A DNA stretch of 64,000 nt. It comes from Klenkia soli. GTDB taxonomy: Bacteria; Actinomycetota; Actinomycetes; Mycobacteriales; Geodermatophilaceae. Below are positions 5,201 to 64,000 of this stretch, one piece after another. The position numbers were made by a program, and so were the translations under genes. How positions within the stretch are numbered: the first letter of the stretch is position 1; each line of letters starts with the position of its first letter. The notes under the pieces are model-generated. The model ran no database searches and was not told where the DNA came from. It saw nothing but the letters and a program-made list of their open reading frames with translations. The DNA is taken from contig NZ_FNIR01000015.1 of assembly GCF_900103975.1 (NCBI RefSeq), positions 1-64,000 on the forward strand. The letters run 5' to 3'.

Positions 5201-6198
5201 TTGTGCTGGTCGGCCGCCGACAGCCGCGAGAAGAGCGGCAGGATCTCGGTGCTGCCCAGCGCCGCCTCGCCGAGGGCGTCGGCGGTGTCGCGGATGTCGC
5301 GCTCGCCGGCCAGGAACACCAGGACGTCGCCGGGACCCTCGGCCACCAGCTCGCGGCAGGCGTCGACGATCGCCGTCGTCTGGTCGCGGTCGGGGTCGGC
5401 CTCGGCGTCGTCGGGGTCGACGACCGGCCGGTACCGCACCTCGACCGGGAACGTGCGCCCGCTGACCTCGACCACCGGCGCGTCGCCGAAGTGCTTCGCG
5501 ATGCGCTCGACGTCGATGGTCGCCGAGGTGATCACGACCTTGAGGTCGGGACGCCGGGGCAGCAGCTGGGCCAGGTAGCCGAGCAGGAAGTCGATGTTCA
5601 GCGACCGCTCGTGCGCCTCGTCGACGACGATCGTGTCGTACTGGCGCAGCAGCCGGTCGCGCTGCACCTCGGCCAGCAGCACGCCGTCGGTCATGAGCTT
5701 GACCAGGCTGGTGTCGCTGACCTGGTCGGTGAACCGCACCTTGTAGCCGACCACCTCGCCGAGCGAGGAGCCGAGCTCCTCGGCGATGCGCTCGGCGACG
5801 GTGCGGGCGGCGATGCGGCGCGGCTGGGTGTGCCCGATGCGCCCGCGCACGCCGCGCCCGAGCTCGAGCAGGATCTTCGGCAGCTGGGTGGTCTTGCCCG
5901 ACCCGGTCTCGCCGGCGACCACGACCACCTGGGCGTCGCGGATCGCCGCGGCGATGTCCTCGCGCCGGCCGCTGACCGGCAGCTGCTCGGGGTAGGTCAC
6001 CACGGGGACGGCGGCCGCGCGAGCAGCGACGCGGGCCTCGGCCCGGACGACGTCGGCGGCGAGCTGCTCGTGCTTGCGGGCCCGGGCCGCCGGGTCGCGC
6101 ACACCGCGCAGCTGGTCCAGCCGGCGGCGGAGGCGGTGCTCGTCCTCGAGGGTCAGCGCGGGCAGCCGGGACCGCAGTTCGTCGGTCTCGGTGCTCAC
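2251..6198 (-). CDS. hrpA: ATP-dependent DEAH-box RNA helicase HrpA
   Basis: About 1315 aa, matching the roughly 1300-aa length of E. coli HrpA. Helicase motifs are in order: Walker A GETGSGKTT (residues 96-104), DEAH (193-196), SAT (225-227), and motif VI QRSGRCGRT (396-404). The HA2/OB-fold region and the long HrpA-specific C-terminal domain (DUF3418 type) follow. In E. coli HrpA unwinds RNA and rescues stalled or collided ribosomes; that role here is by homology. I place the start at GTG 6198, since upstream in-frame codons (to 6351) run through the MarR operator region and look non-coding. It is transcribed divergently from the marR-exporter pair and converges on the deaminase gene. Cytosolic. 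Confidence 0.95.
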   Translation of the reverse strand: MSTETDELRSRLPALTLEDEHRLRRRLDQLRGVRDPAARARKHEQLAADVVRAEARVAARAAAVPVVTYPEQLPVSGRREDIAAAIRDAQVVVVAGETGSGKTTQLPKILLELGRGVRGRIGHTQPRRIAARTVAERIAEELGSSLGEVVGYKVRFTDQVSDTSLVKLMTDGVLLAEVQRDRLLRQYDTIVVDEAHERSLNIDFLLGYLAQLLPRRPDLKVVITSATIDVERIAKHFGDAPVVEVSGRTFPVEVRYRPVVDPDDAEADPDRDQTTAIVDACRELVAEGPGDVLVFLAGERDIRDTADALGEAALGSTEILPLFSRLSAADQHKVFQPHTGRRIVLATNVAETSLTVPGIRYVVDPGTARISRYSARTKVQRLPIEAISQASARQRSGRCGRTSDGIAIRLYSEEDFAGRPEFTDPEILRTSLASVLLQMASLGLGAVEDFPFLDPPDRRAVADGYALLDELGALADGRLTETGRALAALPLDPRLARMVVEADRRGVLEEVLVIAAGLTVQDVRERPADAQAAADQLHARFAAEDSDFTSLLNLWRYLGEKQAELSGNQFRRTVKREYLHWLRIREWQDLHGQLRGTARRLGMTLQDGRGELAAEPDERGVHAALLAGLLSQVGLQQDLGKDASPGDKRRGSREYLGARGAKFVIAPGSVLTRKPPRWVVAGELVETSRLFARTVARVDPETIEKLADHLVKRQYSEPRWDAKRGSVVATERVTLYGIPLVVGRRVQYGSIDPVVSRELFIRHALVQGEWQTNHRFWAHNQQVLAQVAELEERARRRDLRVDDEAVFELYDARVGAEVVSARHFDTWWKQARRQHPHLLDFTPAMVTDAGVAEQVAAGDFPDEVHLTQGLVLPLSYAFDPGAEDDGVTVDVPLGVLDTVAAQTSGASLAWTVPGQREELVTALLRGLPKQVRRGLVPIPDRVREVLPHIDPTEPLLPALEREVRRAVAVLIPHDAWVPSSVPDHLRATFRVLDDRDRPLASGKDLDALRAQVAGESRRSLARASADVSRTGLTSWTLGTLPETVQVDRQGHLVTAYPALVDEGPTAGVRVVPTAAEASRLTWLGARRLLLLAVGSPAAKVVKSLQPRTRLALQFNPDGEIPALVADCVDAAADELIALHGGPPRTAEAFAGLVEASRTQLHTLTAEAVRRVEAVLTQARETAIAIGAAPGRGVPASAVADLRAQMTGLLHRGFVATLGFRRLRDAVRYLAAMAVRLEKLPAAAGRDALWQEQVEAVTEEHRQLATRVPSVGGPDDPVARIRWMVEELRVSLFAPSVGTPRSISEQRIHKAVDALG

Positions 6199-6243
6199 AC
6201 GTCCCAGTTTCCCACCCCACCGCCACCCGGTTGCCGGTGCAGC

Positions 6244-6319
6244 GCGCAACCAGTTGCGCACATCACAGGAACATGCACCCTGCAACTGATTGCATGTACC
6301 GCACAACGAGTTGTACCGT
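6244..6319 (+). promoter_or_regulatory. Three CAAC-NN-GTTG palindromes over the marR promoter (probable MarR operators)
   Basis: Site 1 (6244-6259) is a perfect palindrome, GCGCAAC-CA-GTTGCGC. Site 2 (6282-6293) is GCAACTGATTGC, with one mismatch. Site 3 (6303-6314) is ACAAC-GA-GTTGT, perfect. Centres lie 36 and 21 bp apart. A TTGCAT (6290-6295) and a TACCGT (6314-6319), spaced 18 bp, make a plausible -35/-10 pair that overlaps sites 2 and 3. Bound repressor would block this promoter, which suggests autoregulation of the marR-exporter operon and perhaps of hrpA on the other side. Confidence 0.7.
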
Positions 6320-6368
6320 CCAACCGTTCCGCCGCCGCGGGGCCGTTCCACCCAGCTCCGGAGTCCGC

Positions 6369-6947
6369 ATGACCGATTCCCTCCTCGCCCCGGGCGAGGT
6401 CGACCACCCGGCCACGAGCCGGCGCGGCGACGTCCACGACGTCTCCGACCAGGTGTCCCGCCTGATGCGGGTCGTGCACGCGCTGAAGAACGCGATCACC
6501 GCCGGCGGCGACCAGTCCCGCGAGCGGGCCGCCCACGTCCTGCTCTTCCCGCTGGTCCGGCTCGGCCCCCAGCGGCAGAGCGCACTGGCCGAGCTGGTGC
6601 ACGCCGACCCGTCCACGATCAGCCGGCACGTCGCGGTGCTGGTCGAGGCCGGCCTCGTGCGGCGGGTCGCCGACGCCCACGACGGCCGGGCCAGCCAGCT
6701 GGTCGTCACCGCGGCCGGCGAGTCGGTCGTCGTGACCATGCACCGCGAGCGCGAAGCCCTGTTCGACTCCGTGACCGCCGACTGGTCCGACGACGAGCTG
6801 ACCACGTTCGGCGCCCTGCTCAGCCGGTTCGTCGACGACCTCACCGAGGCCATCCCGGCCGTCGCCGACGCGGCCCGCCTCCCCCAGAACCCTGCTGCCG
6901 CCGCCGGCGACCAGTGGACCCGACCCACCCCCGAGAAGGACCGATGA
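6369..6947 (+). CDS. MarR family transcriptional regulator
   Basis: 192 aa. It has the MarR winged-helix layout: helix dimer arm, then 'SALAELVHADPSTISRHV' as the helix-turn-helix, then 'RRVADAHDGRASQLVVT' as the wing with the typical D-x-R-x3 strand, and a C-terminal dimerisation helix. Upstream in-frame codons from 6231 run through the operators, so ATG 6369 is chosen. Its stop overlaps the exporter start (ATGA, 6944-6947), which is classic translational coupling. Such pairs usually have the regulator sensing a toxic ligand and releasing operators upstream; the three palindromes at 6244-6314 fit this. The ligand is unknown. Confidence 0.9.
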   Translation: MTDSLLAPGEVDHPATSRRGDVHDVSDQVSRLMRVVHALKNAITAGGDQSRERAAHVLLFPLVRLGPQRQSALAELVHADPSTISRHVAVLVEAGLVRRVADAHDGRASQLVVTAAGESVVVTMHREREALFDSVTADWSDDELTTFGALLSRFVDDLTEAIPAVADAARLPQNPAAAAGDQWTRPTPEKDR

Positions 6948-53870: not shown

Positions 53871-54527
53871 TCACAGCGCGAAGAAGACGGTCTCGGCGTC
53901 GCCCTGCAGGTGGATGTCCAGCCGGTAGCCGTCCTCGGTCGGCGCGGCCACCAGGGTGGCCCGCTGGTCCGGGGTGAGCCCGCGCAGCACCGGGTCGCCG
54001 GCGTGGTCGTCGTCGGCGAAGTAGATGCGCGTGACGACCCGGTCCAGCAGGCCGCGCGCGAACACGGAGACGTCGACGTGGGGGGCCTGCAGGCCCCCGT
54101 CGCCGTCGGGCACCGGGCCGGGCTTGAGGGTGCGGACGGCGTACTCCCCGCCCGGCGTGGCGGACCGGGCGAAGCCGCGGAAGCCCGGGGTGGACGACGA
54201 GCCGCGCGGGTCGTCGGGGTGGGCGAAGCGGCCGTCGGGGTCGGCCTGCCAGGTCTCGACCACCGCGTCGGGGACGACGTCGCCGTTGCCGTCGACCACC
54301 GTGCCGCGCAGCCAGATCTCCCCCGCCGTGCCGGGGGCCACCGCGTCGGGGCCGTCCGGCCAGGTCAGGCCGATCGCGAGGTACGGGCCGACCGTCGCGC
54401 TCGGGGTGGTGTGCAGGGCCGGCGGCTCGTCGAGGAACCCGCTGCCGCGCCGCGGGGTGCCCGGGCGGCGGTCGTTGGTCTCGTCGGCACCGGTCACCAG
54501 CGGGCTGTCGTGCTCGAACGCGCTCAC
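53871..54527 (-). CDS. pcaG: Protocatechuate 3,4-dioxygenase alpha subunit PcaG
   Basis: 218 aa. TPSATVGPYLAIGLTWP is the alpha-subunit start; GEIWLRGTVVDGNGDVVPDA and TWQADPDGRFAHP are the intradiol dioxygenase fold. The iron ligands are in the beta subunit, and here the corresponding residues are lost (APHVDVSVFARG instead of RPAHIHF), as normal for PcaG. GTG overlaps the pcaH stop (GTGA). Confidence 0.93.
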   Translation of the reverse strand: MSAFEHDSPLVTGADETNDRRPGTPRRGSGFLDEPPALHTTPSATVGPYLAIGLTWPDGPDAVAPGTAGEIWLRGTVVDGNGDVVPDAVVETWQADPDGRFAHPDDPRGSSSTPGFRGFARSATPGGEYAVRTLKPGPVPDGDGGLQAPHVDVSVFARGLLDRVVTRIYFADDDHAGDPVLRGLTPDQRATLVAAPTEDGYRLDIHLQGDAETVFFAL

Positions 54528-55264
54528 GCGACATCTCCGTCGTCGTCGGTCTCGAACGGGGTCTGCCCGGTGCCGCGCAGCACGATGTCCCACCGGTAGG
54601 CCAGCGCCCAGTCCGGCTGGGTGCGGGACAGGTCGAACCCGGCGATCGCCCGGTCACGCGCGGTGGGCGGGATGGCGTTGAAGATCGGGTCCTGGCCGAA
54701 TAGCGGGTCGCCCGGGAAGTACATCTGGGTGACCAGGCGCTGGGTGAATGCGGTGCCGAACAGCGAGAAGTGGATGTGCGCCGGCCGCCAGGCGTTGTGG
54801 TGGTTGCCCCACGGGTACGCACCGGGCTTGATCGTTGTGAACTCGTAGCGCCCCAGCGCGTCGGTGACCACCCGGCCCAGGCCGTCGAAGTGCGGGTCCA
54901 GCGGCGCCGGCCAGTTGTCGACGACGTGCCGGTAGCGGCCCGCGGCGTTGGCCTGCCAGATCTCCAGCAGGGCGCCCGGCACCGGGCGCCCGCCGCTGTC
55001 CAGCACGCGGCCGAACACGATGATCCGCTGGCCCTGGGCCTCGCCGCCGGCGCGCAGCGTGAGGTCGCCGTCGCCGGGGGCCAGCCGGTCCTCGCCGAGC
55101 ACGGGCCCGGTGATCTCGGTCAGCCGGTGCGGGAGGTCGACGGGGGTGCGCAGCGGTGCGCGCAGGCCGGTCGAGCGGTAGCCGTCGAAGGCGACGGGGG
55201 TCCGCTGGCCGGCGTCCTCCCGGAGGTAGCTGGGCAGCACCAGCCTCGATGTGGTCCCGGTCAT
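54524..55264 (-). CDS. pcaH: Protocatechuate 3,4-dioxygenase beta subunit PcaH
   Basis: 246 aa. All four Fe(III) ligands fit the Pseudomonas enzyme spacing: Tyr111 (GRYRHV), Tyr150 (GAYPWG), His163 and His165 (WRPAHIHFS). It cleaves protocatechuate between its hydroxyls with O2 to 3-carboxy-cis,cis-muconate. First gene of pcaHGBDC. A TACGTT -10 lies 7 nt before the ATG, so the mRNA is probably leaderless. Divergent IclR regulator 84 nt away. Confidence 0.95.
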   Translation of the reverse strand: MTGTTSRLVLPSYLREDAGQRTPVAFDGYRSTGLRAPLRTPVDLPHRLTEITGPVLGEDRLAPGDGDLTLRAGGEAQGQRIIVFGRVLDSGGRPVPGALLEIWQANAAGRYRHVVDNWPAPLDPHFDGLGRVVTDALGRYEFTTIKPGAYPWGNHHNAWRPAHIHFSLFGTAFTQRLVTQMYFPGDPLFGQDPIFNAIPPTARDRAIAGFDLSRTQPDWALAYRWDIVLRGTGQTPFETDDDGDVA

Positions 55265-55271
55265 GCCGGCG

Positions 55272-55299
55272 AACGTACGACCTGCGCCACACCTCTGGC
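55272..55299 (-). promoter_or_regulatory. pcaH leaderless promoter and possible regulator half-sites
   Basis: On the minus strand TACGTT (55277-55272) is 7 nt from the pcaH ATG. Just upstream, GCCA-cacctc-TGGC (55286-55299) is a short inverted repeat that could be part of the IclR-type operator. Confidence 0.5.
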
Positions 55300-55348
55300 A
55301 CGCTGTGCATCCCGCTGGGCGGAAGGATGCCGACGAGGAGGGGACACG

Positions 55349-56134
55349 GTGGCCGGAGGTGCCGCGACGACCGGGCGGTCGGTGACCTCGCGCGCCCTGG
55401 GGGTCCTCGACGCCTTCGACGCCGACCACCCGAGGCTGACCCTGTCCGAGATCGCCGGGCGCACGGGCACCCCGCTGACCACCGCGCACCGCCTGCTCGC
55501 CGAGCTCGCCGACTGGGGGGCGCTGGTCCGGCGTCCCGACGGCCGGTACGAGGTCGGCCGCAAGCTCTGGGACCTCGGGCTGCTGGCCCCCGTGCAGGCC
55601 GAGCTGCGCCAGGTGGCCAGCCCCTTCCTGCTCGACGTGCACACCGCGACCCGCGACACCGTGCACCTGGCCGTCCGCGACGGGCTGGCCGCCCTCTACG
55701 TCGACCGGGTGTCGGGCCGGGAGTCGGTGCCCGTGGTCAGCCAGGTCGGCAGCCGGTTGCCGCTGCACGCGGTGGGGGTGGGCAAGGTCCTGCTGGCCGC
55801 CGCGCCGGACGACGTCGTCGAGCAGGTGCTGCGCTCCCCCACACGGGCCACCCGGCACACGGTGGTCGACCCGGCCCGGCTGGCCCGCGAGCTCACCGAG
55901 ACCCGGCGCACCGGGTGGGCCCGCACGTCGGAGGAGATGTCCCTGGGGGCCGCCTCGGTCGCCGTCCCCGTCACGGTGGTGCTGCGCGGCGGGCGCACGG
56001 TGGTCGCCGCGGCGCTGGGCATCGTCGTCCCCACGCACCGCGCCGAGCGCGACCTCCCCCGCCTGGTCCCCGTCCTGGAGGTCGCCGCCCGCGGCATCGG
56101 CCGCGAACTGGCCCGCACCCCCGACTTCCGCTGA
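55349..56134 (+). CDS. IclR family regulator of the pca cluster (PcaR-like)
   Basis: 261 aa. N-terminal winged helix: TSRALGVLDAFDADHPRLTL, then HTH AGRTGTPLTTAHRLLAELAD and wing LVRRPDGRYEVG; the IclR ligand domain follows (GSRLPLHAVGVGKVLLA is the typical pocket strand). Position between pcaH and pobA makes it the likely regulator of both; PcaR-type proteins respond to 3-oxoadipate or protocatechuate. Start GTG 55349, with GAGGAGG upstream. Confidence 0.87.
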   Translation: MAGGAATTGRSVTSRALGVLDAFDADHPRLTLSEIAGRTGTPLTTAHRLLAELADWGALVRRPDGRYEVGRKLWDLGLLAPVQAELRQVASPFLLDVHTATRDTVHLAVRDGLAALYVDRVSGRESVPVVSQVGSRLPLHAVGVGKVLLAAAPDDVVEQVLRSPTRATRHTVVDPARLARELTETRRTGWARTSEEMSLGAASVAVPVTVVLRGGRTVVAAALGIVVPTHRAERDLPRLVPVLEVAARGIGRELARTPDFR

Positions 56135-56184
56135 CCGGGAGCCGGGCCTCGCGGTCCGCCTGTACCCGTGGTCACACTCCAGTC

Positions 56185-57357
56185 GTGCGTACTCAGGTGG
56201 GGATCATCGGGGCCGGGCCGGCCGGGCTGCTGCTGTCGCGGATGCTCGCGGTGCAGGGCATCGAGTCCGTCGTGCTGGAGAACCGCTCGCGCGACTACGT
56301 CGAGGCGCGGATCCGGGCCGGCATCCTCGAGCAGCACACCGTCGACACCCTGCGCGAGGTCGGCATGGGCGCCCGGCTGGACCGCGAGGGCCTCGAGCAC
56401 GACGGCATCTACCTGCAGTACCCGGGCACCCGGCACAAGCTGGACTTCCCCGAGCTGTGCGGGCGCAACGTGTGGATCTACGGCCAGTCCGAGGTGGTCA
56501 AGGACCTGATCGCCGCCCAGCTGGACGACGGCCCGCCGCTGCTGTTCGAGGTCTCCGACGTCCAGCCGCGCGACGTGGACACCGACTCGCCCTCGATCGC
56601 GTTCACCGACGCCGACGGCGTGGCCCAGGTGCTGGAGTGCGACGTCGTCGCCGGCACCGACGGGTTCCACGGCGTCTCGCGGCCCATCGTCACCGCCGCC
56701 ACCGACGGTCAGCTGTGGGAGCGCACCTACCCCTTCGCCTGGTTGGGCATCCTGGCCGACGTCGCGCCCAGCACCGACGACCTGATCTACGCCTGGCACC
56801 CCGACGGCTTCGCGATGCACTCGATGCGCTCGCCGTCGGTGTCGCGCCTCTACATCCAGGTCGACCCGACCGAGAAGATCGAGGACTGGTCCGACGACCG
56901 GATCTGGGAGGCGCTGGCCACCCGCATGGCGCTGCCGGGCTGGGAGCTGCAGACCGGGCCCGTGACCGAGAAGTCGATCCTGCCGATGCGCTCGTTCGTG
57001 TCCTCCCCCATGCGGCACGGCCGGTTGTTCCTGGCCGGGGACGCCGCGCACATCGTGCCGCCGACCGGCGCCAAGGGCCTGAACCTCGCCGTCGCCGACG
57101 TGACGCTGCTGGCCCGGGCCCTGGTGCGGTTGCTGGCCGAGAAGGAGACCGACCTGGCCGACGCCTACTCGGACAAGGCGCTGGCCCGGGTCTGGCGGTG
57201 CACCCACTTCTCCTGGTGGATGACGTCGATGCTGCACACCCACGGCGACGACTTCGACGCCCAGCTGCAGCTCTCGCAGCTGCAGCGGGTGTGCACCTCG
57301 GAGGCCGCGGCCCGCGAGCTGGCCGAGATGTACACCGGCCTGCCCGTCGCGCTGTAG
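56185..57357 (+). CDS. pobA: 4-hydroxybenzoate 3-monooxygenase PobA
   Basis: 390 aa, matching Pseudomonas PobA (394). GxGxxG at residues 9-14 in IIGAGPAGLLLSRML, RAGILEQHTVDTLRE is the PobA signature stretch, GTDGFHGVSR the second flavin motif, and LAGDAAHIVPPTGAKGLN the third. Uses NAD(P)H and O2 to hydroxylate 4-hydroxybenzoate to protocatechuate, feeding pcaHG. A CACACT hexamer 6 nt before GTG 56185 may be a weak leaderless -10. Convergent with the DUF3533-like gene, 1 nt between stops. Confidence 0.95.
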   Translation: MRTQVGIIGAGPAGLLLSRMLAVQGIESVVLENRSRDYVEARIRAGILEQHTVDTLREVGMGARLDREGLEHDGIYLQYPGTRHKLDFPELCGRNVWIYGQSEVVKDLIAAQLDDGPPLLFEVSDVQPRDVDTDSPSIAFTDADGVAQVLECDVVAGTDGFHGVSRPIVTAATDGQLWERTYPFAWLGILADVAPSTDDLIYAWHPDGFAMHSMRSPSVSRLYIQVDPTEKIEDWSDDRIWEALATRMALPGWELQTGPVTEKSILPMRSFVSSPMRHGRLFLAGDAAHIVPPTGAKGLNLAVADVTLLARALVRLLAEKETDLADAYSDKALARVWRCTHFSWWMTSMLHTHGDDFDAQLQLSQLQRVCTSEAAARELAEMYTGLPVAL

Positions 57358-58884: not shown

Positions 58885-59961
58885 TCAGCCCGCGCTGCGC
58901 CGCGCCTGCTCCTGCCGGGCACCGGCCAGCCGGGCCCGGGCGACCTGGAGGTCCTGCTCGACGGCAGACCGGTCCCAGCTCTCGGGCAGCGGGCTCATCA
59001 CCCGACCGTGCCGGCGCAGCAGCGGCACCCGGGTGCGGCCGGCCGGCACCAGCGCCAGCAGCTGCTCCCCCGCGTGCACCCCGGCGGCGGCCGCGAACGC
59101 GTAGCGCTCCAGCTCCGGCCGGCCCAGCCCGACCGGGTCGGCGGCGGTGGCGTCCGCGGCGACCCAGGTGAGGTAGAGCCAGTCCGCCCCGCCCATGCCG
59201 GTCCGCGCACCGGCGGCGGCCCGGTGGGCCACGGTCGGCACCGGCTGCCCGCAGGTGGGGCAGTGCCACGACAGCTGCCACCCCTCCCCGGTGTCGTCCG
59301 CGACCGGCTGCAGCAGGTGCGGCACGAGCGGCGGGGTGGTCGGGCAGAGCAGGACCTGCCGGCCCGGGTGCTGACGGGCCGCGCACAGCAGCTGGGCCTC
59401 CAGCTCGTCGGCCACCGCCGTGCCGTGCCGCAGCGCCACCCGGCGCGGCCACGCCCGCGCCGAGGGCAGCTGCAGCGGCAACCAGGGCAGCCACAGGTAG
59501 ACCAGCACCACGTAGGGCAGCACGGCCGTCCACGGCGCGGGCCGGTCGTCGCCCAGCAGCATCGCGACCAGGGCTGCGGTGTAGACCACCGCGCCCACCA
59601 GGCCCAACCGGGCCAGGAAGAAGCCGTCGGCGAAGGCACCGGTGTGCACCACCCGCTTGAGCCCCCGCCAGGCCAGCGCCGCCGCCAGGAACGGCACCCC
59701 CACGACCGGCACCAGGAACACCGCGCGGAAGAACAGCCACAGGTCGCTGCCCAGCAGCTGGTACCCGAGCAGGACGGCGAGGGCCAGCAGCGCCACCGGG
59801 ACCACCGCGAGCAGCGCCGCCGCCGCGAGCACCGGGGCCGGGGGGCGCAGGTGCCGCACCCCGGCCAGCACCACGCCCACCGGCGGCCCGAACCCGCGGG
59901 GCGGCCCCGCACCCTGGACCGCCTTGGCCGACTCCATCAGCGGGGGCAACGGCGCGGACAC
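58885..59961 (-). CDS. Multi-TM protein with C-terminal CxxC domain, unknown
   Basis: 358 aa. Four or five membrane segments between about residues 42 and 170, then a soluble part with one CxxC (SWHCPTCGQP) that could bind zinc or form a thiol pair, and a C-terminal coiled-coil-like RSAVEQDLQVARARLAGAR. No family recognised. GTG 59961 is preceded by GGGAG, about 10 nt upstream; ATG 59937 is an alternative. Divergent from the four-paralogue cassette, 58 nt apart, so the two may function together. Confidence 0.7.
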   Translation of the reverse strand: MSAPLPPLMESAKAVQGAGPPRGFGPPVGVVLAGVRHLRPPAPVLAAAALLAVVPVALLALAVLLGYQLLGSDLWLFFRAVFLVPVVGVPFLAAALAWRGLKRVVHTGAFADGFFLARLGLVGAVVYTAALVAMLLGDDRPAPWTAVLPYVVLVYLWLPWLPLQLPSARAWPRRVALRHGTAVADELEAQLLCAARQHPGRQVLLCPTTPPLVPHLLQPVADDTGEGWQLSWHCPTCGQPVPTVAHRAAAGARTGMGGADWLYLTWVAADATAADPVGLGRPELERYAFAAAAGVHAGEQLLALVPAGRTRVPLLRRHGRVMSPLPESWDRSAVEQDLQVARARLAGARQEQARRSAG

Positions 59962-60006: not shown

Positions 60007-60012
60007 TAGGGT
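60007..60012 (+). promoter_or_regulatory. -10 hexamer TAGGGT, leaderless promoter of paralogue cassette
   Basis: TAGGGT, 7 nt, then ATG 60020. Lies in the 58-nt divergent spacer with the membrane-protein gene. Confidence 0.5.
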
Positions 60013-60019
60013 CGCGTCG

Positions 60020-60655
60020 ATGTCCGCTCCCGGTGTCACCCCGCCGCCCGCGGCCGACCTGCTGCTGCCGATCGGCCACTCCCTCGGGCTGGGCGACCTG
60101 GGGGCCGTCGAGGTCCGGCTCGGTGCCGCGGTCGAGGAGCTGCCCCTCGAGGAGTTCTCGCTGTGGGCACTCGCGCACGGCGACCCCGACGGCGGCGACC
60201 GACCGTGGGGCGCCGACCAGGTCCTCGCCGCCGCTGCCCGGGCCGGCCTGGCCGACGCCGCGGAGCACCTCTCCGCCCTCGAGCAGCGTGGCCTGCTCGT
60301 GCGGGCGACCCCCGGTGCGGCCTCGGCGCGGGCCCTGGCCGACCGGGTGCGGCTGCTGCCGCTCGCGATCGGCCTGGGCAACACCCGGGTGCAGCCGCAG
60401 GTGTACCGCATGGGCCGGTCCGACGAGCTGCTCGCGGTCGGCAGCTCCACCACCTACGACCTGTTCACCTGGGCGCACATGGAGACCAGCCTGTGGCGGG
60501 CCTGCGTCGCCTCCGCCGCCGTCGCGTCGCGAGCCGGGGCGTCCGACCCCGGCCTGGTCGACCCCGACGAGCTGCTCACCGGCCTGCTGTCGACGCTGCA
60601 CCCGCTGCTGGTCACCGGCGCCGTGTGCCTGGACACCTGGGGGGTCGCCGCGTGA
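60020..60655 (+). CDS. Paralogue cassette protein 1, unknown
   Basis: 211 aa, soluble. N-terminal strand-like motif LLLPIGHSLGLGDLG, helical middle with LWALAHGDPDGGDRPWG, then LSALEQRGLLVRATPG, a helix-turn-strand that looks like the end of a winged helix. The C-terminal third has TYDLFTWAHMETSLWR and ends LSTLHPLLVTGAVCLDTWG. The order and motifs (GHxLG start, xxLxxRGLLV, W-containing helix, ...YLD-type end) recur in the next three genes. No known family; possible regulator or scaffold. Confidence 0.7.
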   Translation: MSAPGVTPPPAADLLLPIGHSLGLGDLGAVEVRLGAAVEELPLEEFSLWALAHGDPDGGDRPWGADQVLAAAARAGLADAAEHLSALEQRGLLVRATPGAASARALADRVRLLPLAIGLGNTRVQPQVYRMGRSDELLAVGSSTTYDLFTWAHMETSLWRACVASAAVASRAGASDPGLVDPDELLTGLLSTLHPLLVTGAVCLDTWGVAA

Positions 60656-61224
60656 CGCTGCTGCTGCGGGTGGGCCACGCCCTCGGCCCCTTCCACCCCG
60701 CCCCGGGCGAGTTCGCCCGGCACCACGTCGTCCGCGTCGGGTGGGAGACGCCCAAGCTGGTCGGGGAGGTCGAGCGGAGCGCGTGGGAGCGCGCGCTGGG
60801 CCGGCCCGACCCCGGCACCGACCCCGCCGTCCTCGACGCCCTGGTCGCCCGCGGGCTGGTCGCCCGGGTGGCCGACTCCCGCGAGGCCCGGTTGGCCTTC
60901 GCCCGCACCCACCGGGTGCAGCCCCTGGGCGCGGGCACGCTCCCGACCGACGACGGCGGCCGCGTGCTGGGCACCTGGTCCCGGCCGGGGGCAGACGCCG
61001 ACCCGGAGGCCTTCGACATCTGGGCCTGGGCGCACCTGTTCCCCACGCTCGAGGCCGCGGCGGCAGGGCTGGCCGGGGCGTCCTCGATCGCCGCCGGCGG
61101 TCCGCAGCCACCGACCGGCGACGCCGTGCTGGACCGGTTGCTGGAGCGGTTGCCCGAGCTGATGGCCGCCGAGCTCCTCTACCTGGACCTTCCCCGCGAC
61201 GCCGTCGACGAGCCACGGCCGTGA
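60652..61224 (+). CDS. Paralogue cassette protein 2, unknown
   Basis: 190 aa. Starts LLLRVGHALGPFHPAPGEF, middle LDALVARGLVARVADS, later EAFDIWAWAHLFPTLEAAA, and ends ELMAAELLYLDLP. These align in order with protein 1 (GHSLG, LEQRGLLV, LFTWAHME, VCLD). GTG overlaps the previous stop (GTGA, 60652-60655), so translation is coupled. Hydrophilic; no signal peptide or TM. Confidence 0.7.
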   Translation: MTLLLRVGHALGPFHPAPGEFARHHVVRVGWETPKLVGEVERSAWERALGRPDPGTDPAVLDALVARGLVARVADSREARLAFARTHRVQPLGAGTLPTDDGGRVLGTWSRPGADADPEAFDIWAWAHLFPTLEAAAAGLAGASSIAAGGPQPPTGDAVLDRLLERLPELMAAELLYLDLPRDAVDEPRP

Positions 61225-61877
61225 GCGGGCCGCTCGTCGTCCCGCTGGGCCGCCAGCTCGCCGTCCTCGACCTGTCCCCCGTCGGCGCGCTCGACCCCCG
61301 CGGCGCGCGCGGCTTCGTGCAGGTCGACGGCGGGCCGGTGGAGCTGTCCGGGGCCGCCGCGCACGTCTGGCTGGCCTGCCACGGGCACGCCGCCGACCCC
61401 GCGCCGCACGGCTGGGGGCAGGACGACGCGACCGCGCTCGCCCGGCGCTGGGGGCTCGGGCCCGACGACATCGCCGCCGGCTGGGACGAGGTGCGGGCCG
61501 CCGGGGTGGTCACCGACCTGGTCGACGACGCCGACGGACGCCGCGCCTGGGCGCGGGCGCACACCCTGCACCCCCTCGTCCCCGCCCTGGGCGAGCTGCC
61601 CGACCGGCCCGCCGTGCACCAGGTGGGGCTCCCCGGCCAGCCCCGGGTCGAGCTGTCCCGGGTGCTGCGCGACGTCTGGGCGTGGGGTCCGCTGTTCACC
61701 GACCTCTGGACCGGGGTCCGCTGGCACGCCGAGGGCCACCGGGCCGCCGGCGTCGACGAGCCCCGCGTCGCCGACCCCGACCTGCTGCTCGCCGACCTGG
61801 TCGCATCGCTCCGGCCGCTGCTGCGGGCGAACGCCGCCTACGTCGACCGCGCGGTCGACGGGGGCGGTGCCCGGTGA
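61221..61877 (+). CDS. Paralogue cassette protein 3, unknown
   Basis: 218 aa. VVPLGRQLAVLDLSPVG at the start, ELSGAAAHVWLACHGHAADP, WDEVRAAGVVTDLVDDADG as the helix-turn-strand, LRDVWAWGPLFTDLW and a C-terminus RPLLRANAAYVDRAV. It fits the same template, though more diverged. GTGA overlap with protein 2. Confidence 0.7.
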   Translation: MSGPLVVPLGRQLAVLDLSPVGALDPRGARGFVQVDGGPVELSGAAAHVWLACHGHAADPAPHGWGQDDATALARRWGLGPDDIAAGWDEVRAAGVVTDLVDDADGRRAWARAHTLHPLVPALGELPDRPAVHQVGLPGQPRVELSRVLRDVWAWGPLFTDLWTGVRWHAEGHRAAGVDEPRVADPDLLLADLVASLRPLLRANAAYVDRAVDGGGAR

Positions 61878-62512
61878 CCACCGGTCCGGTGCTGCCGGTC
61901 GGGTTCCGGCTCGGGGCGGAGACCGTGCCCGACCCGGTCGCCGGGTCGGTGCGGCTGGGCTGGCGGCGGCTCGGGCTGGACGCCGCCCAGGCCACGACCT
62001 GGGACCTCGCGCACGGCCTGCTCGACGACGACCCGGCCCGCAGCGGCGAGCTGCTGATCGAGCGCGCGGCGGCCGCCGGGGTGCCCGACCCGGCCGCGGT
62101 GGTGGCCGCCCTGGTCGAGCGGTCCCTGCTGGTGCAGGTGCCGCCTGCGGGCCCGGCCCTCCTCGCGACGGCCGCGGGCCTGCGGGCCCGGCCGCTGCTG
62201 CTCGGTCTGGGCGTGGGCGAGGACGGCACGACCAGCGTCCTCGGGCTGCCCGGGTGGCCGGTCCTCGAGCTGCCGCCGCCGGTGGTGACCCGGTGGGAGG
62301 ACACCGCGGTGTCGCCCGACCTGCGCACGGCGGCCGAGCTGGCCGTGCTGCGGGCCTGGGACCTCGCCCACCCCGACGCCACGGACCCCGACGCCGCCCC
62401 CACCCCCACCGACGACCAGGTGCTCGCCGAGCTGTCCGGCATCGTCGCGGACCTCTCCGCGCTGATCACCCGGCACTGCGGCTACCTCGACCTCGCCGAC
62501 CCCGGCGCCTGA
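61874..62512 (+). CDS. Paralogue cassette protein 4, unknown
   Basis: 212 aa. VLPVGFRLGAETVPDPVAG, TTWDLAHGLLDDDPARSGE, VAALVERSLLVQVPPAG, LAVLRAWDLAHPDATDP, and the end ALITRHCGYLDLADPG. Again the same order of motifs as proteins 1-3. GTGA overlap with protein 3. Last gene; the next gene converges from the right. Confidence 0.7.
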   Translation: MTTGPVLPVGFRLGAETVPDPVAGSVRLGWRRLGLDAAQATTWDLAHGLLDDDPARSGELLIERAAAAGVPDPAAVVAALVERSLLVQVPPAGPALLATAAGLRARPLLLGLGVGEDGTTSVLGLPGWPVLELPPPVVTRWEDTAVSPDLRTAAELAVLRAWDLAHPDATDPDAAPTPTDDQVLAELSGIVADLSALITRHCGYLDLADPGA

Positions 62513-62534: not shown

Positions 62535-62587
62535 TGGTCAGCCCGTGGTCAGCTCGGTGGTCAGCCGGGTGGACGGTCCGTGGTCAG
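62535..62587. repeat. TGGTCAG direct repeats between convergent genes
   Basis: TGGTCAG at 62535, 62546, 62558 and 62581 (periods 11, 12 and 23). About one or two helical turns apart. The last copy includes the stop codon of the leftward gene. Confidence 0.6.
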
Positions 62588-64000
62588 CCGGTGGTCCGCA
62601 CGGGACGCAGCCGGCCCAGCAGGTCGGCCACCGGACGCAGCCGCAGCGCCGCCGTCGCCGCCCCGGCCTCGGCCGGCGGGAGCTGCCGGGGCCCACGACC
62701 CGGCACCAGCTGCGGACCCGGGCCGCCCAGGGTGACCGGCAGCTCGCTGAGCACGGGCTCGCGGCCCCCCCGCTCGCCCAGCACGACGGCGTGCTCCAGC
62801 CGCCCGACCGGGGGGCGCAGCGCACCCAGCGCCTGGGCGGCGGCCTGCAGCACCGCCGCGGGCACGCCCCACCAGAAGCTCGACCCCGGGACGTCGGAGA
62901 GCACCAGGACCGGACGCTGGCCCGGCCCCGGGTCGACCCAGCGGACCAGGAGATCCACCTGCGACCCACCGGGGGCCACCACGGTGACGACGGCGGCCGT
63001 GGTGCGACCGGTGCCGCCGGGCCAGTCGTCCACGTCGACCAGCGGCGCCACCGCCGCCTGCGGCGCGGGCGCGGGGACCGGCCCGGCGGACGGCGGGACG
63101 GGCGACGGCGGCGGCGCGTAGGGCAGCGGCGGCCGCCCGACCGGAGGGGCCGCCGCGGGCGGAGCCGCGGGGGCAGGGGCCGGGCTCGGGGCGGGGCTCG
63201 GGGCGGGGGCCTGGCTCGGGGCGGGGGCCTGGGCGGGTGGCGCGCAGGCGCACGGACCGCCGGGCGGGCAGTCGCAGGCCTCCTCCGGCCACCACCCGGT
63301 CGCGTTGGCCACGGTGCGCACCCACCGCCACAGCTGCTCGTCGTGCCCGACGGCCGCCGCCGAGCCCACCAGGGCCCCGCTGATGGACGCCAGCGCGGTC
63401 GGGAGCGCCGTGCGGCGCCGAGCGGCCTCCGGTCCCGGGTCGAGGAGCCCGAGCCGGCGGGCGTCGGCGAGCACGGCACCGACCCGCTCGGCCCGCGCAT
63501 CGGGAGCCGTCCCGCGCAGCTCCTCGGCCCGGCGGGCCAGCAGCGCCAGCTCCCGGGCGTCGGTGACCGCCGAGGGGTCGGGGGTCGTCGCCGGGCCGGG
63601 GGGCGTGGACCGGGCCAGGGCGCTCCCGGCCGAGGCCACCAGCGCCGCCGCCCGGTCGAGCACCAGCTGCAGCAACCGCGGACGCCGGGACCGCGTGACC
63701 GCGTCGTCCAGCCGCCCCCGGGCCGCGGCCAGGTCGGCCCGCGCGTCGGCGAGCTCGGCCTGCGCCCGCGCCTGCGCCTCGTCCAGGGCCCCCTGCTGCG
63801 CAGCCCGCGCGATCCCCGTCCACCGGGTGCGCCGCGCCTCGACCACCGCGGTGCGCGCCGCCTCCCGGTCGGCACCCGACCGGCGGGCGACGGTGTCGCC
63901 CACGACGGCCACCAGGGACGCCACGGCGGCCAGCCCCGCGGCGGCGGCGCCCCCGACCACCGGCAGCACGGGGGCCGCCAGCGCGTGCCAGGTCGCCGGC
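62584..64000 (-). CDS. Membrane protein with coiled coil, Cys cluster and Pro/Ala linker, 5' end beyond window
   Basis: At least 472 residues; the frame stays open to the right edge, so the start is probably outside (GTG 63969 is possible inside). Order: hydrophobic segment VVGGAAAAGLAAVASLVAVV, an Ala/Arg/Glu coiled coil (about residues 35-95 from GTG 63969), a helical region, then a Cys cluster CDCPPGGPCAC, a Pro/Ala/Ser linker of about 90 residues (about 63060-63250), and a folded C-terminal domain with VLSDVPGSSFWWGVP. No family recognised. Converges on the paralogue cassette. Two other long frames in this region (62538-63875 and 62561-63823) are rejected. Confidence 0.65.
   Translation of the reverse strand, partial: PATWHALAAPVLPVVGGAAAAGLAAVASLVAVVGDTVARRSGADREAARTAVVEARRTRWTGIARAAQQGALDEAQARAQAELADARADLAAARGRLDDAVTRSRRPRLLQLVLDRAAALVASAGSALARSTPPGPATTPDPSAVTDARELALLARRAEELRGTAPDARAERVGAVLADARRLGLLDPGPEAARRRTALPTALASISGALVGSAAAVGHDEQLWRWVRTVANATGWWPEEACDCPPGGPCACAPPAQAPAPSQAPAPSPAPSPAPAPAAPPAAAPPVGRPPLPYAPPPSPVPPSAGPVPAPAPQAAVAPLVDVDDWPGGTGRTTAAVVTVVAPGGSQVDLLVRWVDPGPGQRPVLVLSDVPGSSFWWGVPAAVLQAAAQALGALRPPVGRLEHAVVLGERGGREPVLSELPVTLGGPGPQLVPGRGPRQLPPAEAGAATAALRLRPVADLLGRLRPVRTTG

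What the first reader, a model, noticed from the sequence alone, without database searches (positions are those of the whole stretch)
60020..62512. Four tandem, translationally coupled paralogous genes of unknown function
Seen: four genes, 190-218 aa, joined by three GTGA overlaps behind one TAGGGT leaderless promoter. By eye each product repeats the same order of motifs: a hydrophobic/Gly start (GHSLG, GHALG, GRQLA, GFRLG), a [LV]xxRG/RSLLV-like helix-turn-strand, a Trp-rich helix (FTWAHM, WAWAHL, WAWGPL, RAWDLAH), and a Cys/Tyr-V/L-D ending (VCLD, LYLD, AYVD, GYLD). I recognise no known family. Inference: tandem duplication of an ancestral gene and divergence, giving subunits of a hetero-oligomer, perhaps with a winged-helix-like fold. 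The flanking unknown membrane proteins (58885-59961 and 62584-64000) could be partners.
Basis: partly seen in the sequence, partly recalled or inferred. Interest (0 to 1): 0.78.

Follow-up and report, generated by a model that had tools for sequence, protein, structure and literature searches.

The report
Paralogue quartet beside type VII secretion
Four related genes of unknown function make proteins that each look like two joined peptide-gripping domains, and in three actinobacterial families a set of four often sits beside a type VII secretion system, so they may be a substrate-handling kit for it.

Summary
Four overlapping genes (211, 190, 218, 212 aa) lie behind a TAGGGT promoter kept in 5 of 5 Klenkia genomes compared. 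All six pairwise profile comparisons give 97-98%: they are paralogues. No curated Pfam, NCBIfam or PADLOC cut-off is reached.

AlphaFold (pLDDT 95) shows an internally duplicated winged helix. The N-half's nearest solved structures are RRE/PqqD-type peptide-binding domains (10 of the top 11 chains, five proteins, partly by recalled knowledge), but no E-value is significant.

The array lies tail-to-tail with a large ORF of an EspG-less type VII secretion locus. In 96 family genomes, all 11 with that locus's WXG100_2 domain carry the paralogues; 14 more keep a two-gene pair without it. Of 23 arrays examined (those 14 pairs left out) 19 have four units. Units 3+4 are fused in one family, 1+2 in another.

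Best reading: two modules (A-B, C-D) form a cytosolic adaptor or chaperone in the slot EspG fills elsewhere. Paralogy and linkage are shown; fold class and the four-unit pattern are well supported; the complex and peptide binding are inferred.

The parts
60007..60012 (+). TAGGGT -10 element of a probable leaderless promoter, 7 bases before the ATG of gene A
   Evidence: sequence; kept in 5 of 5 Klenkia genomes compared
60020..60655 (+). gene A, 211 aa, two RRE-like winged-helix halves
60047..60316 (+). N-terminal half-domain of A (residues 10-99), folds alone at pLDDT 93; nearest PDB entries are RRE-bearing proteins
60341..60652 (+). C-terminal half-domain of A (residues 108-211), second repeat
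60652..61224 (+). gene B, 190 aa, GTG start, 4-bp overlap with A
61221..61877 (+). gene C, 218 aa, GTG start, 4-bp overlap with B
61874..62512 (+). gene D, 212 aa, GTG start, 4-bp overlap with C
58885..59961 (-). divergent membrane protein of unknown family; its cluster occurs in 9 of the 20 loci clustered (9 of the 11 family genomes with the secretion locus) and in none of 7 loci that keep only the A-B pair
62584..64000 (-). 3' end (last 471 codons) of the large convergent open frame; relatives of this region in 7 loci; the type VII secretion genes follow beyond the window

Best explanation
The four proteins are paralogues, each made of two RRE/PqqD-like winged-helix half-domains. They work together as two modules, A with B and C with D, probably heterodimers that join into one complex. 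They are soluble accessory factors of an EspG-less type VII (ESX-type) secretion system encoded beside them. Most likely they bind a peptide or helix tip of the system's large substrate (in the window's genome a WXG100_2 protein) or of its small partners, by beta-strand addition as RRE domains do, keep it export-competent and hand it to the EccC machine. Shown: paralogy, co-directional overlapping genes, linkage. Well supported: internal duplication, RRE-like fold, four-unit pattern. Inferred: the complex, peptide binding, the chaperone role.
For: Paralogy: six of six profile pairs at 97-98%. Fold: AF2 pLDDT 95.1, pTM 0.89, two repeats of four strands, helices, one strand; N-half against C-half 80%, E 1.4e-5; N-half alone pLDDT 93.3; 10 of its top 11 PDB chains are RRE-bearing (five proteins; RRE content partly recalled); full-length model 8 of top 11. 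Linkage: WXG100_2 in the large ORF; YbaB, subtilase, two WXG100, EccB, EccD by Pfam; EccE; EccC by homology. Family sample: WXG100_2 query of the own locus found in 11 of 96 genomes, all paralogue-positive (hypergeometric 5e-8); strong EccB in the same 11. Order sample, same single query: the 10 genomes with E below 1e-13 all have the paralogues. Four units in 19 of 23 arrays, units 3+4 fused in 5 arrays and 1+2 in 3. Two-unit remnants and one split array respect AB|CD. EspG in 47 of 150 order genomes, in 0 of the 22 with strong paralogue hits.
Against: All Foldseek E-values are 0.12 or above and TM-scores modest; the sequence link to PqqD is weak (N-half 30%; C-half 0.2%). Fourteen family genomes keep an A-B-type pair without WXG100_2 gene or EccB, and two genomes of another family have 5 and 6 copies and no EccB, so the family is not confined to type VII secretion. 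The WXG100_2 domain alone does not predict the paralogues: 36 of 150 order genomes match the query at E<=1e-3, and 21 of these lack strong paralogue hits. In G107 the large ORF beside the array has no Pfam hit at its start, and in G129 it is just under the cut-off. Co-occurrence counts ignore shared ancestry. In G107 and G129 a gene lies between units 1 and 2. The tree does not group the units of family f3 with the same positions elsewhere. No binding partner was tested.
Confidence: 0.47

Rival explanations
1. The four proteins are immunity proteins that neutralise a toxic part of the large type VII substrate.
For: They lie beside a WXG100_2 protein, a domain I know from toxins, and evolve rather fast (Klenkia median dN/dS 0.39-0.65).
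Against: Paralogue types A-D recur within the family and partly in f13, whereas immunity genes usually change with their toxin. They are convergent with the substrate gene rather than behind it. A small, repeated gene of about 130 aa (cluster c12) sits inside the locus where immunity genes are expected. Pairs persist in genomes without the WXG100_2 gene.
Confidence: 0.14
2. They are a structural or assembly part of the secretion machine itself (a soluble cap or ring) rather than a substrate adaptor.
For: Recurring number of units and linkage to EccB/C/D/E.
Against: Pairs and single copies exist in genomes without EccB; G165, G110 and G158 have EccB but no paralogue hit.
Confidence: 0.16
3. They are DNA-binding winged-helix regulators of the locus.
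For: Winged-helix topology; weak single-member Pfam hits to HTH families (best IclR, E 0.0034, 1 of 40 members).
Against: The proteins are acidic (pI 4.3-5.5; median of 40 relatives 4.8). The N-half profile does not match an IclR winged helix (0.8%; a narrow alignment, so a weak control).
Confidence: 0.08
4. They are true RiPP recognition elements that guide modification of a ribosomal peptide.
For: Nearest solved folds are RRE-bearing proteins.
Against: No member of 40 hits PF05402 at E<=1. The Pfam hits obtained for neighbours are type VII secretion genes; no dedicated search for RiPP enzymes was made. The own genome has no PF05402 match.
Confidence: 0.05

Closest known systems
RiPP recognition element (RRE) / PqqD fold (PF05402)
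   Same: Each half has strands followed by three helices; nearest PDB hits are McbB, TbiB1, CteB, TigE, PqqD and ThcOx (protein names and RRE content partly recalled).
   Different: Two halves in one protein, an extra strand before and one after the helices, no hit to PF05402, four paralogues beside a secretion locus.
EspG chaperones of type VII secretion (PF14011)
   Same: Soluble proteins encoded with the ESX machine; proposed to occupy the same functional slot. EspG is missing from some ESX-4-type systems (PMC11217815, passages).
   Different: No PF14011 hit in the Pfam scans; no EspG entry among the 50 hits shown of 69 or of 409; shorter; four paralogues.
Partner and targeting proteins of T7SSb substrates (Lap proteins, small EsxB/C/D partners, EsaE)
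   Same: Accessory factors encoded near a large WXG/LXG-type substrate (PMC9600955 and PMC10653861, search listing and abstract start only; Lap and EsaE also in passages of PMC11217815).
   Different: EsaE is said to be EspG-like and Lap-LXG complexes to resemble PE-PPE; these are winged helices with a beta-rich start.

Membership tests
RRE / PqqD-like domain | beta-beta-beta then alpha-alpha-alpha order (definition in PMC12710340, passages) | tested here: met
   N-half E5-8 E11-15 E21-25 E28-32 H34-42 H56-65 H71-80 E84-87, with one extra strand before and one after
RRE / PqqD-like domain | match to PF05402 or strong profile similarity to PqqD | tested here: not met
   no PF05402 hit in 40 members at E<=1; profile comparison 30% for the N-half, 0.2% for the C-half
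RRE / PqqD-like domain | significant structural match to a solved RRE | tested here: inconclusive
   10 of top 11 chains, best E 0.12, probability 0.91; PMC12710340 reports about 75% false positives among Foldseek members it inspected (passage)
RRE / PqqD-like domain | binds a leader peptide | not testable with these tools
   needs a binding assay
EspG chaperone | PF14011 sequence family | tested here: not met
   no hit for the four proteins or 40 members; no PF14011 match in the 22 strong paralogue genomes
EspG chaperone | encoded in a type VII secretion locus | tested here: met
EspG chaperone | binds the tip of the substrate helical bundle | not testable with these tools
   needs complex prediction or co-purification
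Type VII (ESX) secretion locus next to the array | EccC, EccB, EccD, mycosin, WXG100 proteins | tested here: met
   EccB, EccD, subtilase and two WXG100 by Pfam; EccC by homology to a relative with FtsK/SpoIIIE domains; EccE
Toxin immunity proteins | specific to one toxin domain and varying with it | not tested
   indirect evidence only

The most novel reading that the evidence does not exclude
A family of tandem RRE-like peptide-binding proteins, unrelated to EspG, has been recruited as a fixed four-subunit (A-B plus C-D) receptor complex that recognises and unfolds or escorts very large type VII substrates, one of them perhaps near 11,000 residues; the same fold serves elsewhere as dedicated partner of small membrane-associated coiled-coil proteins.
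Probability: 0.28. Interest if true: 0.82.

Novelty: new variant of a known kind. Interest (0 to 1): 0.6.

Why it matters
How type VII systems without EspG choose and deliver large substrates is, in my judgement, open (PMC11217815 notes that EspG is missing from some ESX-4 subtypes; passages). A recurring quartet with a peptide-gripping fold beside such systems is a concrete, testable candidate. It would also extend RRE-like domains from peptide natural products to protein export, and the fusions predict which subunits touch.

Tried and rejected
Scans of the four proteins and both flanks against Pfam, NCBIfam and PADLOC gave nothing above curated cut-offs. A profile search of PDB sequences gave 4 marginal hits, best E 0.042. 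DNA search of the own genome gave, besides the locus, 36 short matches with E 5.6e-6 or more. P0001 against plasmids: no match. Class-wide profile search: 1 of 246 genomes, the own one (E<=1e-6); how many of these 246 come from other orders was not shown in full.

I first took the 3195-codon ORF beside the array as one giant gene. Codon-position GC shows a mosaic in the window's genome (frame signature lost around codons 1001-1200, 1401-1600, 1801-2000), so I treat it as a WXG100_2 gene plus other genes.

I first thought the family specific to type VII secretion; copies in genomes without EccB and pairs without the locus rejected that.

Weak test, set aside: a profile (A9) of 12 substrate N-termini gave 15 order genomes with E below 1e-20, 14 of them with strong paralogue hits, G165 the exception. 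But A9 was built from substrates beside arrays and the cut was chosen after the fact, so this is partly circular; at E<=1e-3 the same profile hits 57 of 150.

Controls for profile comparison: N-half against WXG100_2 0.4%, against IclR 0.8%. Alignment A8 mixed strands by my mistake and was not used; A10 replaced it.

Rows dropped before counts: G035 (49 residues, E 2e-4) from the 26 family positives; G115, G134, G152 and G222 (E 1.7e-5 to 8.6e-4) from the 26 order positives, leaving 22. Three of these four (G115, G152, G222) do have EspG matches, so the EspG exclusion depends on reading them as chance HTH hits.

Literature: type VII with PqqD, 0 papers; with RiPP recognition element, 1 paper, on Staphylococcus chromogenes; nothing on this family in the listings seen. 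The library lacks most subscription journals.

Full report
WHAT IS THERE. The window holds four genes on the + strand: A 60020-60655, B 60652-61224, C 61221-61877, D 61874-62512, of 211, 190, 218 and 212 aa. They overlap by GTGA at each junction, and TAGGGT lies 7 bases before the ATG of A; CGATAGGGTCGC is kept in 5 of 5 Klenkia genomes compared, the own one included. The genus name rests on named records: three loci of genome contigs have the contig lengths of genus-mates G045, G040 and G003 and are Klenkia terrae, Klenkia sp. PcliD-1-E and Klenkia brasiliensis.

ARE THEY PARALOGUES? Yes. Profile comparison of the four ortholog sets gives 97.0-98.2% for all six pairs. The A-D match is confined to residues 15-123 of A. 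No curated family covers them; scanning 40 relatives one by one gives only weak hits in one or two members each.

FOLD. AlphaFold2 on a 40-member alignment gave pLDDT 95.1 and pTM 0.89. The order is four strands, three helices, one strand, a linking helix, then four strands, further helices, one strand. The N-halves match the C-halves at 80%, E 1.4e-5, in register, so each protein looks like an internal duplication. The N-half alone folds at pLDDT 93.3. Of its top 11 PDB chains 10 belong to McbB, TbiB1, CteB, TigE and PqqD, which to my recalled knowledge carry RREs; the exception is 8hkr. For the full-length model 8 of the top 11 chains are of that kind, ThcOx first, but with high rmsd. No single E-value is significant (best 0.12 and 0.16), TM-scores of those N-half hits are 0.40-0.61 on the query, and a published survey warns that Foldseek searches for RREs give many false positives (PMC12710340, passages). 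Sequence similarity to PqqD is suggestive for the N-half (30%, E 5e-4, aligned from the Trp helix to the RGLL strand) and absent for the C-half. Controls against WXG100_2 and IclR gave 0.4% and 0.8%. I conclude: RRE-like winged helices, likely; members of the PqqD family, not shown.

SURROUNDINGS. Beyond the window (L009) the convergent open frame begins with a WXG100_2 domain (PF25547, E 1.8e-16). Next to it lie, by Pfam, a YbaB-family protein, a subtilase (mycosin-like), two WXG100 proteins, EccB and EccD; EccC by homology to relatives (FtsK/SpoIIIE domains in the G107 relative); and EccE about 4 kb past EccC. The own genome has no match to EspG, PF14011. The stretch 62584-64000 is the tail of the large frame, which in this genome is a mosaic of genes.

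CO-OCCURRENCE. Of 96 genomes of the family 26 match gene A (25 without one weak hit). The own WXG100_2 sequence matches 11, all paralogue-positive (P 5e-8). EccB matches 12: the same 11 and one distant hit without paralogues. The other 14 positives, all of one genus, show two matches each and neither WXG100_2 nor EccB; in the seven of these loci read, the pair is intact, with median dN/dS 0.24 for A and 0.55 for B. Of 150 genomes of the order 22 have strong paralogue hits. The own WXG100_2 sequence matches 36 of 150 at E<=1e-3: 15 of these have strong paralogue hits and 21 do not; the 10 with E below 1e-13 all do. So it is a close clade of the substrate, not the domain in general, that goes with the paralogues. 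EspG is found in 47 of 150 (41 over the cut-off) and in none of the 22, but three of the four weak paralogue hits that I dropped do have EspG. None of these counts is corrected for phylogeny.

FOUR UNITS. I examined 23 arrays in families f1, f3 and f13; the 14 T7SS-less pairs are not among them. Four units are found in 19 of 23 (G133 gives five matches because one unit matches in two pieces; G141 gives three and four). The rest: G031 has three on a short contig and a further match on another contig; G055, G129b and G137b have two. In f13 units 3 and 4 are one protein of 404-465 aa (G107, G129a, G137a, G120, and the lone double G129b); in f3 units 1 and 2 are one protein of 425-435 aa (G097b, G124, G141), while G097a, G112 and G133 are unfused. 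In a maximum-likelihood tree of 106 units, unit 2 of f1, f13 and G133 falls in one clade (93/90), which also holds unit 4 of f1. The remnants group as A+B (four pairs of genus g6, G137b) or C+D (G129b), and the split array of G036 is C+D and, 5 kb away, A+B. The tree is not well resolved: positions need 9-10 changes each, and most f3 units lie on long branches apart from the same positions elsewhere. Against a strict A-B module, G107 and G129a have a gene between units 1 and 2.

POSITION. In 16 of 23 arrays the last unit is within 80 bp of, or overlaps, the 3' end of a large convergent ORF by my gene calls; in G137a the gap is 475 bp; two arrays end near a contig edge (G040, G141); the other four (G031, G129b, G137b, G112) have other neighbours or a short contig. 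Besides the own locus I scanned the N-termini of ten such ORFs for PF25547: eight pass the cut-off, G129 is just under it (26.4 against 27 bits) and G107 has no hit. Secretion genes related to EccB, EccD and mycosin lie in the fetched stretches of G045, G003, G022, G001, G097 (two loci), G107, G129, G133, G112, G124 and G120, and in part in G036 and G055. In G107 the convergent frame runs for 10,929 residues with coding-type composition throughout.

OTHER COPIES. Two genomes of f5 have 14 and 11 matches and two of f11 have 6 and 5, mostly dispersed. The f11 genomes have no EccB match, the f5 genomes do. Of 30 such genes inspected 15 have a same-strand gene starting within 120 bp downstream. 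In f5 several of these downstream proteins combine a hydrophobic segment, a coiled coil and a Pro-rich tail (read by eye; weak coiled-coil-type Pfam hits), and some upstream neighbours are HTH-DUF5753 regulators (two tested by Pfam). This looks like one partner-binding protein per partner, which fits an adaptor role but is inference.

MECHANISM. RRE domains bind a peptide by adding it as a strand beside their sheet (recalled). A unit here carries two such halves, four units carry eight. I propose that A-B and C-D form two heterodimers that grip segments of the large substrate or its small partners, keep them export-competent and dock them at the EccC machine, the role EspG plays for PE-PPE (PMC11217815, passages). 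Linkage is shown; the modules are supported by fusions and remnants; peptide binding and escorting are inferred. Acidic pI (4.3-5.5) speaks against DNA binding.

VERDICT. I found no description of the family in the searches made. I rate it a new variant of a known kind: an accessory set of type VII secretion built on an RRE-like fold rather than the EspG fold.

Noticed in passing
window 53871-57357: Upstream of the locus lies what looks like a protocatechuate/4-hydroxybenzoate catabolic cluster (two dioxygenase-like subunits, an IclR-type regulator, a flavin hydroxylase); names are recalled from sequence, not from a call. Clusters c1-c3 recur in many of the relatives.
   Followed up: no
L134:16184 through L133 to L110:8973 (G107 C1): A single open frame of 10,929 residues with coding-type composition between an ESX gene set and the array; its start has no Pfam hit.
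   Followed up: partly
L093, L094, L101, L102 and others (G099, G126): Dispersed copies of the family between an HTH-DUF5753-type regulator and a coiled-coil protein with a hydrophobic segment, often with a 4-bp overlap; possibly regulator-adaptor-effector triads.
   Followed up: partly
L045, L046, L047, L052, L057, L058, L059: An A-B-type pair is kept in 14 sampled genomes of one genus without the WXG100_2 gene or EccB; what it does there is unexplained.
   Followed up: partly
L009 about 6150-6540, L042:1251-2246, L051:16629-19586: Small repeated genes (about 130 aa, cluster c12) inside the locus, candidates for immunity proteins.
   Followed up: partly
G000 contig C15:33374-33712: A second match to the WXG100_2 domain in the same genome, without a paralogue match on that contig.
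   Followed up: no
G107 C1:300875, G129 C2:693672, G137 C17:409372: In family f13 the better WXG100_2 match lies at a second place, away from the four-unit array; the relation between the two loci is unexplained.
   Followed up: no
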